From Akkermansiaceae bacterium (GTDB lineage: Bacteria > Verrucomicrobiota > Verrucomicrobiia > Verrucomicrobiales > Akkermansiaceae): a stretch of 43,356 nt of DNA. Under the pieces are notes generated by a model, which was not told the DNA's origin, made no database searches, and saw only the letters and a program-made list of their open reading frames with translations. Location of the stretch: positions 1-43,356 of the forward strand of contig JALZUC010000030.1 of assembly GCA_023301765.1 (NCBI GenBank), written 5' to 3'. The position numbers were made by a program, and so were the translations under genes. Every line of letters starts with the position of its first letter. The stretch's first letter is position 1. Below, piece by piece: positions 24,195 to 43,080 of this stretch.

Positions 24195-25190
24195 ATGCAG
24201 GGTAAACAATTTGAAGAAAAGAACTCAAGGCGCTGGGCTGAGTATGAGGAGACCTTAAATAAGGTGGATAAAAAGGGGCATGATCTCGATGTCTCTAGAG
24301 TGCCTACGATGTTCCGGGAGATGTGTGCGGATCTTGCGCTGGCACGTCACCGTATGTATGGCATGCCCATGAATGAGCGGCTCAATGAGCTGGTGATCCG
24401 CGGGCATAAGATCATTCACCGTAGGGCGGGTGGAACGTGGGAGGTGTTATTTCGTTTTATAGCAGTTGATTTCCCAGTGTCTGTTAGATCTGAGTGGCGG
24501 CTACTTATCATTGCTACGTTATCATTTATAGTGCCGTTAATAGGGGTGGCTGTAGCGGGGTTTTATTGGGCGGATTTCTCATGGATACAGGCGGTGCTGG
24601 GGCCTCAGATGATGGGGCAGCTAGATATGATGTATGGCAGTGAGGATGATCAGATTTCTAATCTTAGGAGTGAGTATGGATCTAACTTCATGATGTTCTG
24701 CCATTATATATTAAATAATATAGGAATTGATTTTAGGATTTATGCCGGGGGGATTCTGGCTTGTCTGGGGAGTTTGTTTTTTCTGGCATTTAATGGTGTC
24801 TACTTTGGTGCGGTGGTGGCTTACATTCACACTGCGTGTAGTACAGAGGCTTTTTATACTTTCGTAGCTGGGCATTCTTCTTTTGAGCTGATTGCTATGG
24901 TGATCGCGGGTATGGCGGGGCTGCGTATCGGTCTGGGTTTGCTACATCCGGGGAGAAAGACACGGAGCCGCTCACTGATGGATGCGGGTATAAAGTCATT
25001 GCCTCTGATTATTGGTGCTGCACTGATGACTTTTGTAGCTGCAGTTATTGAGGGGTTTTGGTCGGCTCAGGATATACCGGCTATGGTGAAGTATTCAGTG
25101 GGTATAGCATTCTGGATCCTTTGTTTTCTCTACCTCGGCTTAGCAGGTAGAGGGGTTAATTACGAGAAAGGGGGACAGAGTGCAGCTTGA
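24195..25190 (+). CDS. SpoIIM/DUF95-family membrane protein
   Basis: The 331-residue product has a soluble N-terminus of about 100 residues, a first transmembrane helix (LLIIATLSFIVPLIGVAVAG), and four to five further helices. These include the DUF95 hallmark NNIGIDFRIYAGGILACLGS and HSSFELIAMVIAGMAGLRIG. In Bacillus SpoIIM works in engulfment; in non-sporulating bacteria homologues occur beside MoxR and DUF58 genes. Nothing suggests sporulation here. Its end overlaps the next gene by 11 bases. Confidence 0.9.
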   Translation: MQGKQFEEKNSRRWAEYEETLNKVDKKGHDLDVSRVPTMFREMCADLALARHRMYGMPMNERLNELVIRGHKIIHRRAGGTWEVLFRFIAVDFPVSVRSEWRLLIIATLSFIVPLIGVAVAGFYWADFSWIQAVLGPQMMGQLDMMYGSEDDQISNLRSEYGSNFMMFCHYILNNIGIDFRIYAGGILACLGSLFFLAFNGVYFGAVVAYIHTACSTEAFYTFVAGHSSFELIAMVIAGMAGLRIGLGLLHPGRKTRSRSLMDAGIKSLPLIIGAALMTFVAAVIEGFWSAQDIPAMVKYSVGIAFWILCFLYLGLAGRGVNYEKGGQSAA

Positions 25191-26700
25191 GAATGTAACG
25201 GCAGAGATCCGGCCACGTGCGCCATGGGAATCGATAGATCTGGGCTGTTCCTTAGCACGTAAGCATATAGGGGTCATCTGGAAGGCGTGGGCAGTGACTG
25301 TTTTTCCTTTATGGGCGGTATTAGCTGTATTGCTACAAAACCATCCTATTTGGTTATTACTGTGTATCTGGTGGCTGAAGCCACTCTATGATCGAGTGCC
25401 TTTAATGGTGTTGAGCCGCTCTCTTTTCGGTGCGGAGCCTACGGTGTTAGAGGTGATGAAAGCTTGGCCAAAGATGCTGGTGCGTAGGCTTTTCTTTGCA
25501 TTGTTTATTGGGCGTTTTTCTCCAGCTAGGAGTCTTAGTTTACCTGTAGCCGAGTTGGAAGGTCTCAGGGGTAGAGCCTACTCACAGCGTGTTAACTTGC
25601 TGGAGCGAAATGGTGGTGAGGGTGCTACGATGGCGACTTTATCTGGTATATTGTTAGAGCTGGTGACTGGGTGTGGGATCGTTATGCTGGCGATGATGAT
25701 GGTGCCCGGGCATACAAGTGCTGAGTGGAGTGAGGGGGTATCTGAGTTTTTTATACATGATAATATATCAGAGATTTCACTGGGTTTTTTCTGGTTAGCG
25801 GTGGGTGTGTATATGTTTTCCATCACGGTGATGGAGCCATTTTATGTAAGTGCAGGATTTGCGCTCTACATTAATAGTAGGACATTAACAGAGGGCTGGG
25901 ATATTGAGCTGGCTTTTAAACGTCTGAGCATACGCATCAAAAAAATGAAATCAGGCGTGGCAGGTAAGGGCACTGCGTTGATTTTACTAACTATGCTGGG
26001 AGTGGGGAGCAGCCAAGATGCCTATGCTACGGGTGCTGGGTATAGGGAGTCTGCGCAGCAGGTTCTCTCTGATGATGATTTTACGATTCATTATAAAAAC
26101 GTGGAAGTACCTGTGAAAAAGGCTGATGGTGCTGATGGTTTACCAGAGTGGTTAGAAAGGCTTTTGGGCGGCGGGGGGTCGGCTTTCTTTATGGGGACAC
26201 TGAGTGTTATTATTTTTTGGACTATACTGGCTGTGGTCGTAGGAGGGCTGATTTATTTAATTATTAAAAATAGGCATAGCTTTAGCGGTGGTATTGGTGG
26301 CTCTAGCGCTAGGGTGAGTATTCCTAAAACAGAAGTAGTGATGGGTATGGATATCCGCCCTGAATCTTTACCTGATGATGTGGTGAATGCTGCTAGAGCT
26401 GCGTGGCGTGATGGTGATAGTCATCTAGCACTGAGTTTACTCTATCGAGGTTCTATCACTTGGTTTGTGCATCGTGGGGCGCTACCAATTGCGGAAAGCG
26501 ATACTGAGGGAGATTGCCTACGCCGAGTGCAGGAGGTGTCTGAGAGTGAGTATGCCCCGTATTTTTCTAGTCTCACCAAGGTATGGGTAAATACAGCCTA
26601 TGGGGAAAATGAGCCAGAAGACAGTCGTGTGGTAGAGCTTTGTGATACTTGGCCGTTTGGCCTAATTACAGCGCCTGGAAAAGGAAGGGGCAGTAGATGA
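25180..26700 (+). CDS. Polytopic membrane protein with C-terminal DUF4129
   Basis: The 506-residue product starts at a GTG (25180) with a good RBS (AAAGGGGGA), inside the end of the SpoIIM gene. Residues about 30-55, 155-175, 195-225 and 340-365 are hydrophobic. The segment between about 275 and 335 is extracytoplasmic. The C-terminal 110 residues (DDVVNAARAAWRDGDSHLALSLLYRG ... ESDTEGDCLRRV) match DUF4129, a cytoplasmic domain usually found beside transglutaminase or MoxR/DUF58 genes. The stop overlaps the next start by four bases. Confidence 0.85.
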   Translation: MQLENVTAEIRPRAPWESIDLGCSLARKHIGVIWKAWAVTVFPLWAVLAVLLQNHPIWLLLCIWWLKPLYDRVPLMVLSRSLFGAEPTVLEVMKAWPKMLVRRLFFALFIGRFSPARSLSLPVAELEGLRGRAYSQRVNLLERNGGEGATMATLSGILLELVTGCGIVMLAMMMVPGHTSAEWSEGVSEFFIHDNISEISLGFFWLAVGVYMFSITVMEPFYVSAGFALYINSRTLTEGWDIELAFKRLSIRIKKMKSGVAGKGTALILLTMLGVGSSQDAYATGAGYRESAQQVLSDDDFTIHYKNVEVPVKKADGADGLPEWLERLLGGGGSAFFMGTLSVIIFWTILAVVVGGLIYLIIKNRHSFSGGIGGSSARVSIPKTEVVMGMDIRPESLPDDVVNAARAAWRDGDSHLALSLLYRGSITWFVHRGALPIAESDTEGDCLRRVQEVSESEYAPYFSSLTKVWVNTAYGENEPEDSRVVELCDTWPFGLITAPGKGRGSR

Positions 26701-38075: not shown

Positions 38076-40559
38076 ATGATGATTAACTATCAAATTAGCT
38101 GTTTTATTATATCGAGCCTGTGTGTCATTTCTGGGCTCATAGCTCAAGAGCCTAATATCAAAGTGCCAGAGGGGTTTAAGGTAGAAAAACTCTATCAAGT
38201 GAAGGGTAAGGAGCAGGGCTCGTGGGTAGCGATGGCGTGGGATGATAAGGGTAGGCTAATCACCTCTGATCAGTATGGTGGGCTTTTTCGTATTACTCTA
38301 AATCCATTTAAGGTAGAGGCTTTAAAGGTGAAAACGGGAGGGGCTCAAGGCCTACTCTGGCACCAGGGGGCTCTCTATGCCTCTGTGGCAAATAAGACGA
38401 TCACACCAGGGGGGATCTATAAACTTACAGATACCAATAATGATGATCAGCTCGATAAGGTAGAGCTGCTTACTGAGCTAAACACAGGTGGTGAGCATGG
38501 GCCTCACTCATTGGTAGCCTCTCCAGATGGAAAGTGGATCTACATGGTGGCAGGTAATTTTACTAAACTACCGAAGCAGGTAAATCATTTCCCAGCGACT
38601 AATAATTGGGGTGAAGACCATCTACTACCACGGATGGCGGATGGTAAAGGTCATGCAAATGGGCTTAAGGCTCCGGGGGGGTGGATTATTCGCTTTACGC
38701 CGGATGCTAAAACTTGGGAACTAGTTAGTAGTGGCTTCCGTAACCCTTATGATATGGCTTTTAATGAGCATAACGAGCTGATGACTTATGATGCGGATAT
38801 GGAATATGATTTTGGCTCGCCATGGTATCGGCCCACACGGATCTGCCATGCCACGAGTGGTGCGGAATTTGGCTGGCGCCATGGCACGGGGAAATGGGCG
38901 GAGTATTATTTAGATAGCACACCGGCAGTAGTGGATCTTGGCCCTGGCTCGCCGACGGGTGTAGTGGCTGGTCTAGGAGCGAAGTTTCCCGGGCGGTATC
39001 AGCGTGCTATTTTTGCACTAGATTGGACATTTGCTACGATGTATGCAGTTCACCTCCAGCCCAGTGGCTCTAGCTACAAGGGGACGCGAGAGCAGTTTTT
39101 ATCAAGTGCGGGGCTTCCTCTTACAGATGCTGTGATTGGTGATGATGGTGCTATGTATTTTATAGTAGGCGGGCGTAGGGCTGGCTCTGCTCTGTATCGT
39201 TTAACATATGAGGGCGAAGAGAGCACGGCCAAGATTTCCCCATCGCCCTTACCTAAGGATTTTACGTTACGCAGGAGACTGGCAGCTATGCATTTGGGCG
39301 GGGAGAGAGACTTGGCTGTGATCTTATCTAGCCTTAGTCATGATGATCGAATCATCCGCTACACTGCACGTGTGGCTCTGGAGAAAGTTCCTATAAGCGA
39401 GTGGGTAGGTAAGATGGCTGAGGGGAAGGATGCGCGGCCACTCTGTCAGATGGCGGTGGCTATAGCGCGCCAAGGGAGTAAAAAACAATCTCATGCTGCG
39501 CTGAAACAACTAGCTAGACTGGATTTCACACAGCTTAGTAAAGAGGGGAAGCTAGAACTCCTGCGGGCAGAGGCTCTGCTGATGGCTCGCCATGGTAAAT
39601 CCAGCACCGATTTGTTAGGCCAATTAGAGGAGCATTTCCCAGATCAGGATGATCAGGTTAACCGTGAACTGTGTAGGATTCTTTGCTATCTAGATGCACC
39701 TAGTGTAATAGCTAAAACTCTCGCTCTGATGGCACAGCCAAAGGAGATGACACCTCCAGACTGGGTAACCCTTGCTGGGAGAAATGAGCGTTATGGGCGA
39801 GATATAGTGAACATGCTCAGAAACCTGCCTTCTACAGATAGCCTCCACTATGCCTATTGCTTACGTGTGGTAAAAGCAAAATGGACAGAGGGCCAACGTA
39901 GACAGTACTTCACGTGGTTTAGTGATGCTGTAAAAAAAGATGGGGGTAGGAGCTATAAAATATTTATTACTAATATCTACAAGGAAGCGCTGGCGAATAG
40001 CTCAGAAGCCGAGCAGAAGATGGTCACATCATGGAAGCTGGATATGAGTAAAGAAGATCCATTTAAGGATCTCCCCATACCTGAGGGACCAGGGGAAAAC
40101 TGGACCGTAGCAGATGTAAGGGCATTAAACCTCGATAAGGTAGACTTGGTGAATGGTGAAAAGATGTTTCGAGCTAGTTACTGTGCCGCGTGTCATGAGG
40201 TGAAGGGGCAAGGTGGCGGTTCTGGACCTGATCTAAGCCACGCTGCTGGGCGCTTTCAGCTAAAGGATCTAGCAGAGGCTATTCTAAATCCTAGTGACGT
40301 GATTTCTAATCAATATGAGTTTAACGTAATCAGTAAAAAGGACGGCTCCACTGTCACAGGTAGGATCCTTAAGGAAAAAGATGGAGTGCTGGTAGTGGCG
40401 GTCAGTGCCTTTGACTTTGATAAAACTGTCGAGGTCAATGAGGTGGATATAGAGAGTATTAAGCCATCAGCAGTCTCTCCTATGCCGCCGGCTCTGATAG
40501 GTAGACTTAATGAACAAGAGGTAAAAGACTTGATGGGTTATCTGCTAAGTCTGAAGTAA
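38076..40559 (+). CDS. Exported beta-propeller protein with PVC-type c-heme domain
   Basis: The 827-residue product starts with a signal peptide (MMINYQISCFIISSLCVISG, cleavage near AQE). A propeller-like domain of about 350 residues follows (EGFKVEKLYQ, DDKGRLITSDQYGGLFRI, GHANGLKAPGGWIIRF, GFRNPYDMAFNEHNELMTYDADMEYD). A helical repeat region comes next. The C-terminal heme domain has CAACH (Cys703, His707), and KGQGGGSGPDLSHAAGRF and ILNPSDVIS after it, as in the Planctomycetes/Verrucomicrobia-type heme-binding domain. It probably oxidises an extracellular substrate and passes electrons on, but the substrate is unknown. It ends 13 bases before a bidirectional terminator. Confidence 0.93.
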   Translation: MMINYQISCFIISSLCVISGLIAQEPNIKVPEGFKVEKLYQVKGKEQGSWVAMAWDDKGRLITSDQYGGLFRITLNPFKVEALKVKTGGAQGLLWHQGALYASVANKTITPGGIYKLTDTNNDDQLDKVELLTELNTGGEHGPHSLVASPDGKWIYMVAGNFTKLPKQVNHFPATNNWGEDHLLPRMADGKGHANGLKAPGGWIIRFTPDAKTWELVSSGFRNPYDMAFNEHNELMTYDADMEYDFGSPWYRPTRICHATSGAEFGWRHGTGKWAEYYLDSTPAVVDLGPGSPTGVVAGLGAKFPGRYQRAIFALDWTFATMYAVHLQPSGSSYKGTREQFLSSAGLPLTDAVIGDDGAMYFIVGGRRAGSALYRLTYEGEESTAKISPSPLPKDFTLRRRLAAMHLGGERDLAVILSSLSHDDRIIRYTARVALEKVPISEWVGKMAEGKDARPLCQMAVAIARQGSKKQSHAALKQLARLDFTQLSKEGKLELLRAEALLMARHGKSSTDLLGQLEEHFPDQDDQVNRELCRILCYLDAPSVIAKTLALMAQPKEMTPPDWVTLAGRNERYGRDIVNMLRNLPSTDSLHYAYCLRVVKAKWTEGQRRQYFTWFSDAVKKDGGRSYKIFITNIYKEALANSSEAEQKMVTSWKLDMSKEDPFKDLPIPEGPGENWTVADVRALNLDKVDLVNGEKMFRASYCAACHEVKGQGGGSGPDLSHAAGRFQLKDLAEAILNPSDVISNQYEFNVISKKDGSTVTGRILKEKDGVLVVAVSAFDFDKTVEVNEVDIESIKPSAVSPMPPALIGRLNEQEVKDLMGYLLSLK

Positions 40560-40628: not shown

Positions 40629-41525
40629 TTAGGCGTCGATCTTACGGTATGCCGAAACTAGGTTGTTTAGTCCCTGGGGCCCTTTGCCTTTAGCCTTATG
40701 CTCCATACCGATGATGCCCTCATAGTTCTTTTTACGGAGCCAGTTGGTGACAGTTGCTAAGTCTAGTTTTCCTGTTCCTGGTTCTTTACGACCGGGGCTA
40801 TCCGCATATTGTACGTAGGTAACTTGATCCCAGACTTTCTCTGCGATTTCTATAAGCCTGTCGCCATGGCCAATTTGCCCCTCGTGGTAGAAGTCAGCAA
40901 GTAGTTTACAGGACTTACGGTTGACTTTTTCACATAGCATATGGCCATCTTCAAAAGAGCGGAGTAGTGGATCTTTCTTTTTGATAGGATGGGAAACTGG
41001 CTCTAGGGCGAGAATGATACCGTGTTCCTCTACGATATCACAGCAGCGCGTCATGGTATCCACGCTTTTGGTAATTTGATCTGCTACAGGCATTTTGTTA
41101 CGAGATCCGGGGAGGAAAGTCATATTTGTCTGCCCGGTAGCTTTGGCTAGATCTATACCTCCGTTTAGATCAGCGATGAGATGTTTCATGCCATCTTCAC
41201 TAGGGTTAGAGAAGTCGAGGCCATGGCCAATTGATATAACAGAGACACCAAGGGACATATTTTTGTCCTTACAGAACTCTGCTATCTTGGGCCATAGCTT
41301 TTTATCACGCCTTATAAGCCAGTTATCCTCCCATGCGCGGAAGCCGAGATCATAGGCGAATTTAAGCTGATCAAGGTAGTCTTGGGGGGCGGTGGGAAGC
41401 TGGCCAAATGTAGGGGCAAACTTTGCTTTGAATGGCTCTATGGTATACTCTTCAGCGAATGCCCTCGATGTTGTGGCCAGAAACGTACTAGCTAAGCTGA
41501 TCTGGGTAAATTTTCTACGGTGCAT
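40629..41525 (-). CDS. Exported TIM-barrel sugar isomerase/epimerase-like protein
   Basis: The 298-residue product fits the AP-endonuclease-type (xylose-isomerase-like) TIM barrel, close to hydroxypyruvate isomerases. Likely metal/substrate residues are seen in ILALEPVSH, KLLADFYHEGQIGHGD, QYADSPGRKEPGTGKLD and GIIGMEHKAKG. The N-terminus reads MHRRKFTQISLASTFLATTS, a twin-arginine-like signal although the motif is not perfect. The protein is probably folded before export. The substrate is unknown; its convergent neighbour is an exported heme-propeller, so both may act on carbohydrates outside the membrane. Confidence 0.82.
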   Translation of the reverse strand: MHRRKFTQISLASTFLATTSRAFAEEYTIEPFKAKFAPTFGQLPTAPQDYLDQLKFAYDLGFRAWEDNWLIRRDKKLWPKIAEFCKDKNMSLGVSVISIGHGLDFSNPSEDGMKHLIADLNGGIDLAKATGQTNMTFLPGSRNKMPVADQITKSVDTMTRCCDIVEEHGIILALEPVSHPIKKKDPLLRSFEDGHMLCEKVNRKSCKLLADFYHEGQIGHGDRLIEIAEKVWDQVTYVQYADSPGRKEPGTGKLDLATVTNWLRKKNYEGIIGMEHKAKGKGPQGLNNLVSAYRKIDA

Positions 41526-41551: not shown

Positions 41552-42772
41552 TTATTTCATGCGGTAGTATCCGTCTTTGTTATAGAGGAAGTAACAGTCC
41601 TTTGGGGTGAGTCTGGGGAGATACATGCAAGGTTTACCTTTTTCATCAGCAGACTCTTGAAGCCCACTAGCGGAGGCCATTGGGCTGGACGTTTTTTTAC
41701 TGTCTGGATTTTTTAGCAATGAAGTCTCATGGATGCGCTCCACGATGTGATCCACCCATTTTAGCTTTTGTGCTTCGGTGCCAAATTCTGTCCAGTCGCC
41801 AGAGGTGGTGTTATCATACATTTTCTGAATAAATTCATCCGTGCTGATACCCATTTTTTCAGCAATGGGAGTGGCTAGACGTTGCCACCATTTTTGTGAT
41901 TCTTGATAGAATTCCTTCTGCTCTGTGAGATTGAGATTAGCGAACATGATGGTGGCACTAATCTGGTGGTGAAGGATTACGGAGTTTGGATAAGCATATG
42001 ACTTTTCAGCTAAGGTGCAGAGGGTAGCTGCCATAGATGCTGCAAATGACTTAACTACCACGTAGACGGGGGCAGTGCTGCCTTCCATAGATTTTAGAAT
42101 GCGGTAGCCAGCCATTACAGACCCACCGGGGGAAGCATCAATGACAATGAAGATAGGCTGATCAGGGTTTTTATTATTAAAGTAATTAATACGTGTGGTG
42201 ATGTGGTCAGCTGTTCCCATAGTGACTGGGCCATTCATGCTGATACGGCGATCAGAGATGACTAAGGTGCCGTCATCGGTGAGAGGATTTTCTAGGTAGA
42301 TAGGTTTGGCATCTGCGTAGACGGCGCGCTTTTTAGCAGACTCTAGAGCTTTGATTTCGCCTTCGAGTTTAGCAGTTTTCATACTGGACTCAGTTTGGAG
42401 AATCTTTAGCTGGCTAGATGCTTGCGCGGCTTTTTGTTTGGCGATTTCAGCTGCCTGCGAGAGAGATTTTTGTTGAGCAAGAAAGTTAGCATCTGCCTCT
42501 TGTGAAGATTTTTTTTGTTTCAGTGCAGCGAGTGCGAGTTCCTCTGAGAGGACTTCTTTTTCTAGCTTGAGCTTGGTAACTCTGGTTCGGATTTCTGCGA
42601 GTTCTTTTTTGAGTTTTTCAGCAGCCAGAGTGTTATCGGCAGTTAATTTTTCGAGAACAGAAGTTTCTTTAACTTGTGCGGTTTCTTGCATGGTGACTTC
42701 AGCGGCCTCTTGGGCAAATGATCCGCTGTTAAGTGCAATAATAGTGGTAGTGGCTAGTAATCGTTTTTTCAT
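41552..42772 (-). CDS. Secreted coiled-coil protein with ClpP-like protease domain
   Basis: The 406-residue product has a signal peptide (MKKRLLATTTIIALNSGSFA), a Lys/Glu/Ala-rich coiled coil over about residues 35-155, and then a ClpP/crotonase-fold domain. The domain carries the oxyanion segment DASPGGSVMAG and the nucleophile in KSFAASMAATLCTLAEK (Ser246). The active-site His is in ILHHQIS (His269) and a probable Asp in MYDNTTSGDW (Asp320). A Lys/Pro-rich tail with two Cys ends the chain. It is a serine peptidase with ClpP-like geometry outside the cytoplasm. The frame is open to a TTG at 42790; I chose the ATG of the signal peptide. Confidence 0.85.
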   Translation of the reverse strand: MKKRLLATTTIIALNSGSFAQEAAEVTMQETAQVKETSVLEKLTADNTLAAEKLKKELAEIRTRVTKLKLEKEVLSEELALAALKQKKSSQEADANFLAQQKSLSQAAEIAKQKAAQASSQLKILQTESSMKTAKLEGEIKALESAKKRAVYADAKPIYLENPLTDDGTLVISDRRISMNGPVTMGTADHITTRINYFNNKNPDQPIFIVIDASPGGSVMAGYRILKSMEGSTAPVYVVVKSFAASMAATLCTLAEKSYAYPNSVILHHQISATIMFANLNLTEQKEFYQESQKWWQRLATPIAEKMGISTDEFIQKMYDNTTSGDWTEFGTEAQKLKWVDHIVERIHETSLLKNPDSKKTSSPMASASGLQESADEKGKPCMYLPRLTPKDCYFLYNKDGYYRMK

Positions 42773-43080
42773 AAAAATGCTTAAATCCAATAAGTAATCA
42801 AACTAAACGAGGTTATGAATATGGCAATGAACATTTTAAAACGCCTCTGAAATTTAACTGAATCTAACATATTTTATGTTTCCTGATTATAGCTTTTACA
42901 GTGATGGTTGATAATTTATCACTGTAGAGGGAAAAGTGCGAAGCTGCTTTGAAATAATATAAGTAACTTAGGGTTAATGCTTGGTGGCGTTATACTGGCT
43001 ACAAACGGGATCGTAGCTTCTTGTTTCCTCCTTTGCTGGGGCGCTTGATCGCTAAACTCTATGGCTAAACGTGCTAATAA
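42773..43080. other. Non-coding stretch before the right-edge IS element
   Basis: No gene is seen. It holds the promoter region of the ClpP-like gene and one perfect 9-bp inverted repeat, TACAGTGAT (42897-42905) / ATCACTGTA (42918-42926), with a 12-base loop and no T-run. Confidence 0.5.

What the first reader, a model, noticed from the sequence alone, without database searches (positions are those of the whole stretch)
41552..42772. Exported ClpP-like serine protease fused to a long coiled coil
A signal peptide, about 120 residues of coiled coil and a ClpP-fold domain with Ser246, His269 and a plausible Asp320 occur in one chain. ClpP normally works in the cytoplasm with an AAA+ unfoldase. 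An extracytoplasmic version has no ATP-driven partner; the coiled coil may instead order a barrel or bind substrates, as in SppA-type enzymes.
Basis: partly seen in the sequence, partly recalled or inferred. Interest (0 to 1): 0.6.

Follow-up and report, generated by a model that had tools for sequence, protein, structure and literature searches.

The report
Exported ClpP-like protease with two-faced helix
Verrucomicrobia, and a few sulfur bacteria, carry a ClpP-type protease that is sent out of the cytoplasm, appears to have lost the docking site for its usual ATP-driven partner, and instead carries a 120-residue helix with two opposite sticky faces; this family has no dedicated Pfam or NCBIfam model and I found no paper on it.

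Summary
The gene at 41552-42772 (-) encodes 406 residues: a Sec signal peptide, one continuous helix (36-154) and a ClpP (S14) domain (Pfam CLP_protease E 7e-19; AlphaFold match to ClpP, Z about 22). The triad is Ser246/His269/Asp326, not Asp320: S 81, H 81 and D 77 of 83 family members. The family is orthologous and patchy across Verrucomicrobiota (44 of 98 close relatives; 33 of 387 sampled in the phylum) and was passed to Thioploca-like gammaproteobacteria. Every member with a known start looks exported. The same genome keeps an ordinary clpP-clpX pair. New findings: (1) the family has lost the ClpX-docking pocket (positions 28, 48, 82, 92 become R, N, G, K) and the ring-ring arginine sensor (Gly in all 46 members first aligned); (2) the helix is not an ordinary heptad coiled coil: it has two hydrophobic seams 179 degrees apart, so it is built to be sandwiched between two neighbours; (3) one tandem paralogue is catalytically dead. 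Best reading: an ATP-independent envelope ClpP whose apical helices form a wall or stalk that replaces the unfoldase. Sequence facts are firm; assembly, activity and substrate are inferred. New variant of a known kind.

The parts
41552..42772 (-). Gene for the exported ClpP-like protein, 406 aa plus stop
   Evidence: full-length homologues in 43 other relatives and 34 public loci
42713..42772 (-). Sec signal peptide, residues 1-20 (MKKRLLATTTIIALNSGSFA), likely cut before Q21; no lipobox
   Evidence: Sequence; comparable N-termini in the other members with a known start. No signal-peptide program was available
42311..42667 (-). Single long helix, residues 36-154, with two hydrophobic seams about 180 degrees apart
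   Evidence: AlphaFold; periodicity analysis
41726..42268 (-). ClpP (S14) domain, residues 169-349
   Evidence: Pfam PF00574; structure matches
42035..42037 (-). Catalytic Ser246
   Evidence: Invariant in 46 of 46, 81 of 83 in the wider set; aligns with E. coli Ser97
41966..41968 (-). Catalytic His269
   Evidence: Invariant in 46 of 46, 81 of 83; aligns with E. coli His122
41795..41797 (-).
   Evidence: 45 of 46, 77 of 83; aligns with E. coli Asp171
41555..41620 (-). Conserved C-terminal tail, residues 385-406 (LPRLTPKDCYFLYNKDGYYRMK), absent from ClpP
   Evidence: Conserved columns L385, P386, P390, D392, N398, Y403
42886..42914 (-). Promoter-like site TTATCA-17-TATAAT upstream (weak evidence)
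   Evidence: pattern only, no more such sites than in shuffles
40629..41525 (-). Exported xylose-isomerase-like TIM barrel protein, 26 nt downstream on the same strand, probably cotranscribed in this genus
   Evidence: PF01261 E 3e-32; same order in L032 and L036
40569..40597 (-). Terminator-like hairpin (12 pairs, T tail) closing the two-gene unit

Best explanation
It is an exported, ATP-independent relative of ClpP. The signal peptide sends it across the inner membrane and is removed, leaving a soluble envelope protein (inferred from sequence). The ClpP domain folds like ClpP and keeps a Ser246-His269-Asp326 triad and oxyanion glycines, so it should cleave peptides (shown for predicted fold and residues, inferred for activity). 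It is not expected to use ClpX/ClpA: there is no ATP outside, and the pocket that the unfoldase loop binds has been replaced by R, N, G and K. The 119-residue helix leaves the ClpP domain from the N-terminal side, where ClpP's axial loops and the unfoldase would sit, and it has two opposite hydrophobic seams. I infer that helices of neighbouring subunits pack side by side into a wall or stalk around the axial entrance, which orders the ring and lets only unfolded chains or peptides reach the active sites by diffusion, as an envelope clean-up protease.
For: Signal peptides across the family. ClpP fold and domain. Triad conservation 81/81/77 of 83. Docking pocket lost, while the ordinary ClpP of the same genome keeps it almost entirely. 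That genome's ordinary clpP lies directly before clpX, so this gene is an extra, separate protein. Helix with two seams: family power 14.6 at period 2.27, permutation p below about 1/3000, seen in both halves and on three scales, in most members from further lineages, seam separation 179 degrees, bootstrap 173-180. Two-stranded MukB segments mostly show the single-face signal instead, while the HflK/HflC helices lean the same way as this family.
Against: No activity, localisation or oligomer data. The Arg sensor that stabilises the ClpP tetradecamer (PMC6110781) is Gly in all 46 members first aligned, so the ring state may be a single heptamer or something else. A 7-helix barrel would put the seams about 129 degrees apart, not 179, so a simple seven-helix tube over the pore does not fit well. 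The loop next to the catalytic Asp has pLDDT under 50. HflK/HflC as control is suggestive only; trimeric Lpp also has a strong second harmonic, though with a strong first one.
Confidence: 0.5

Rival explanations
1. It is a membrane-linked processing protease that works with an envelope scaffold, like the NfeD1b-stomatin pair: the helix docks on a membrane or SPFH partner rather than on its own neighbours.
For: In the Akkermansiaceae and a second family a membrane protein with an extracytoplasmic domain (two TM segments in most) lies directly upstream (found in 20 loci by clustering). In one Thioploca contig HflK and HflC are directly upstream, and a stomatin-like gene lies three genes downstream in L056. 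NfeD1b proteins join a ClpP-type domain to SPFH partners (PMC2636767).
Against: The membrane neighbour also occurs in many genomes without the protease and lies elsewhere in the window's own genome. SPFH genes were seen near only two of the gammaproteobacterial loci. NfeD1b_N scores 14 bits against a cut-off of 40.
Confidence: 0.25
2. It is a scaffold or binding protein in which the ClpP domain mainly supplies an oligomer, and proteolysis is secondary or lost in some members.
For: One tandem copy has lost all three triad residues (L117, G-S-E), and a few have Asp to Asn or Glu. Helix and tail are conserved.
Against: Ser and His are retained in 81 of 83 members and the oxyanion region is invariant in the 46 first aligned, which implies selection for catalysis in nearly all.
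Confidence: 0.15
3. The start is misread and the protein is an ordinary cytoplasmic ClpP paralogue with an N-terminal extension.
For: Localisation rests on sequence alone.
Against: Signal peptides are present across the family and differ in sequence while keeping their form; the unfoldase pocket is lost.
Confidence: 0.05

Closest known systems
ClpP, MEROPS S14 (Pfam PF00574)
   Same: Fold, Ser-His-Asp triad in register, oxyanion glycines, handle region of similar length
   Different: Exported; 119-residue helix in place of the axial loops; extra C-terminal tail; ClpX-docking pocket and Arg ring sensor lost; all ClpP equivalog models far below cut-off
NfeD1b N-terminal ClpP-class protease (stomatin partner)
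   Same: Extracytoplasmic ClpP-superfamily serine protease without an ATPase
   Different: NfeD1b has membrane helices and a Ser-Lys dyad (own knowledge); here there is a His-Asp triad and no TM segment after the signal peptide; model score below cut-off
SppA (S49)
   Same: Envelope protease of the ClpP/crotonase superfamily, ATP-independent
   Different: SppA uses a Ser-Lys dyad and a membrane-anchored octamer (own knowledge); SppA model scores 17.7 against a cut-off of 155
HflK/HflC (SPFH) cage helices
   Same: Helices packed side by side; a similar two-seam trend in the periodicity control
   Different: No sequence relation found; no SPFH domain here

Membership tests
ClpP / S14 superfamily | CLP_protease domain and ClpP fold | tested here: met
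   68.8 bits against 20.2, 26 of 26 members; Z about 22
ClpP / S14 superfamily | Ser-His-Asp triad in register | tested here: met
   S246/H269/D326 align with E. coli S97/H122/D171; 81/81/77 of 83
ATP-dependent ClpP (equivalog) | Passes a curated ClpP equivalog or subfamily model | tested here: not met
   Best 60.7 bits against 228
ATP-dependent ClpP (equivalog) | Hydrophobic pocket for the unfoldase IGF loop | tested here: not met
   E. coli V28, L48, F82, M92 correspond to R, N, G, K in the window (K in 46 of 46 at 92); ordinary ClpP of the same genome has I, L, F, I. Pocket role: PMC9823225, PMC6110781
ATP-dependent ClpP (equivalog) | Arg sensor before the catalytic Asp, needed for a stable tetradecamer | tested here: not met
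   Gly in 46 of 46; role from PMC6110781
ATP-dependent ClpP (equivalog) | Forms a tetradecamer with peptidase activity | not testable with these tools
   Only a monomer could be predicted
SppA (S49) | SppA model | tested here: not met
   17.7 bits against 155.45
NfeD1b | NfeD1b N-terminal domain model | tested here: not met
   14.2 bits against 40
   p 0.18 (window), 0.93 (family mean); a two-seam pattern instead

The most novel reading that the evidence does not exclude
A self-compartmentalising envelope protease that replaces the AAA+ unfoldase with its own helical wall: ClpP-type rings whose N-terminal helices pack side by side into a large closed wall or cage, in some lineages mixing active and dead subunits, giving ATP-free gated proteolysis outside the cytoplasm.
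Probability: 0.2. Interest if true: 0.8.

Novelty: new variant of a known kind. Interest (0 to 1): 0.5.

Why it matters
ClpP is the textbook case of a protease that needs an ATP-driven unfoldase for protein substrates. A conserved, exported family that kept the catalytic machine but lost the docking site would show how such a chamber can be regulated without ATP. The two-faced helix makes a definite, testable prediction about assembly. The family has no model of its own in Pfam or NCBIfam, and none of the papers searched describes it.

Tried and rejected
Asp320 as triad acid: rejected. Phage prohead protease or mobile element origin: no full-length match in phages or plasmids, only ClpP-domain similarity under about 32%; viral contigs give the ClpP domain only. 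Obligate partnership with the upstream membrane protein: rejected as a rule, since it occurs in many genomes without the protease; its predicted fold had no significant match (best E 6e-3, E. coli lipoprotein YceB). Simple 7-helix tube over the pore: does not fit the 179-degree seam separation, although the model assumes point seams. Papers on extracytoplasmic or secreted ClpP, or Verrucomicrobia ClpP-like proteins with signal peptides: none relevant found. VIA-align rows were all ClpP, so the SppA and NfeD folds were not compared structurally.

Full report
What is there. The minus-strand ORF at 41552-42772 encodes 406 residues. Residues 1-20 form a type I signal peptide by sequence; 36-154 form one continuous helix in the AlphaFold model (pLDDT mostly 70-92); 169-349 are a ClpP domain; the last 20 or so residues are a conserved tail not found in ClpP. 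Foldseek and VIA-align match the domain to ClpP of many species at Z about 22.

Active site. The acid is Asp326, in a conserved xGDW motif; Asp320 is not conserved. In an alignment with E. coli ClpP, checked as identical to PDB 1tyf, these three fall on Ser97, His122 and Asp171. In a wider set of 83 members Ser is kept in 81, His in 81 and Asp in 77; some of the rest are fragments, and one tandem copy (L117) has lost all three (G, S, E), recalling inactive ClpP paralogues that join mixed rings.

Family. 44 of 98 close relatives carry a full-length homologue and 33 of 387 genomes sampled across the phylum; one genus of the same family, with many nearly complete genomes, lacks it. It also occurs in Thioploca-like gammaproteobacteria, in several as two copies. 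A tree places these as one clade nested among verrucomicrobial sequences, plus one separate sequence within the Akkermansiaceae; this fits horizontal transfer, though the root is a midpoint and mis-binning of single contigs cannot be excluded. Members with a complete N-terminus have Sec-type signal peptides and no lipobox.

Not an ordinary ClpP. The same genome has a normal ClpP directly before ClpX. Compared with it and with E. coli, the family has changed the pocket for the unfoldase's IGF loop (positions 28, 48, 82, 92 to R, N, G, K in the window) and has Gly in place of the arginine that bridges the two rings. The role of both sites is documented (PMC6110781, PMC9823225). Curated ClpP models score far below their cut-offs.

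The helix. A normal coiled coil shows hydrophobic power near 3.5 residues; this one does not. The family mean instead peaks at 2.27 residues, the second harmonic of a helix with 3.58 residues per turn, with power 14.6 and permutation p below about 1/3000; the signal is present in each half and on three scales. Members from other verrucomicrobial lineages and from gammaproteobacteria mostly show it too; two (L106, L107) do not. A two-harmonic fit puts the seams 179 degrees apart (bootstrap 173-180); the harmonic ratio matches a nearly flat wall or a ring of about 24 helices better than a 7-helix barrel. As controls, MukB segments mostly show the one-face signal; HflK and HflC cage helices lean to two faces; Lpp shows both. 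The 11-residue deletion in two Thioploca sequences is close to three helical turns, which keeps the phase. The step from two seams to a wall is inference.

Context. In the window the gene is followed after 26 nt by an exported xylose-isomerase-like TIM barrel protein (PF01261) and then a terminator-like hairpin; the order is kept in two congeners. In many Akkermansiaceae and in one further family the gene upstream encodes a membrane protein with an extracytoplasmic domain of unknown fold, but that protein also occurs without the protease. In one Thioploca contig HflK and HflC precede it.

Verdict. A real, conserved and apparently undescribed exported branch of the ClpP superfamily. Shown: domain, triad residues, loss of docking and sensor residues, two-faced helix, distribution. 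Inferred: export itself, proteolysis without ATP, lateral packing of helices, envelope clean-up as the role.

Noticed in passing
window 40629-41525 (-): Exported xylose-isomerase-like TIM barrel protein 26 nt downstream of the protease gene, same order in L032 and L036; why these two should be co-expressed is unexplained.
   Followed up: partly
L065:3099-5209 and L056:3791-4663: SPFH genes (HflK-HflC; a stomatin-like gene) near the ClpP-like gene in two gammaproteobacterial contigs, recalling the NfeD1b-SPFH pairing.
   Followed up: partly
L117, minus strand, ORF 4260 (reverse-strand offset) beside the intact copy: Tandem paralogue with all three catalytic residues replaced (G, S, E) next to an intact copy; other genomes of that family carry two tandem copies with intact triads.
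   Followed up: partly
L037:4893-5747 and relatives (alignment A2): Widespread family of membrane proteins (two TM segments in most) with an extracytoplasmic domain, no Pfam match and no significant structural match; present in 77 of 98 relatives.
   Followed up: partly
window 38076-40559 (+): 827-aa exported protein with a C-terminal cytochrome c domain, of a type common in Verrucomicrobia and Planctomycetes (the last point from own knowledge).
   Followed up: no
window 25180-26700 (+): 506-aa protein without a Pfam match, directly upstream of a DUF4350 gene.
   Followed up: no
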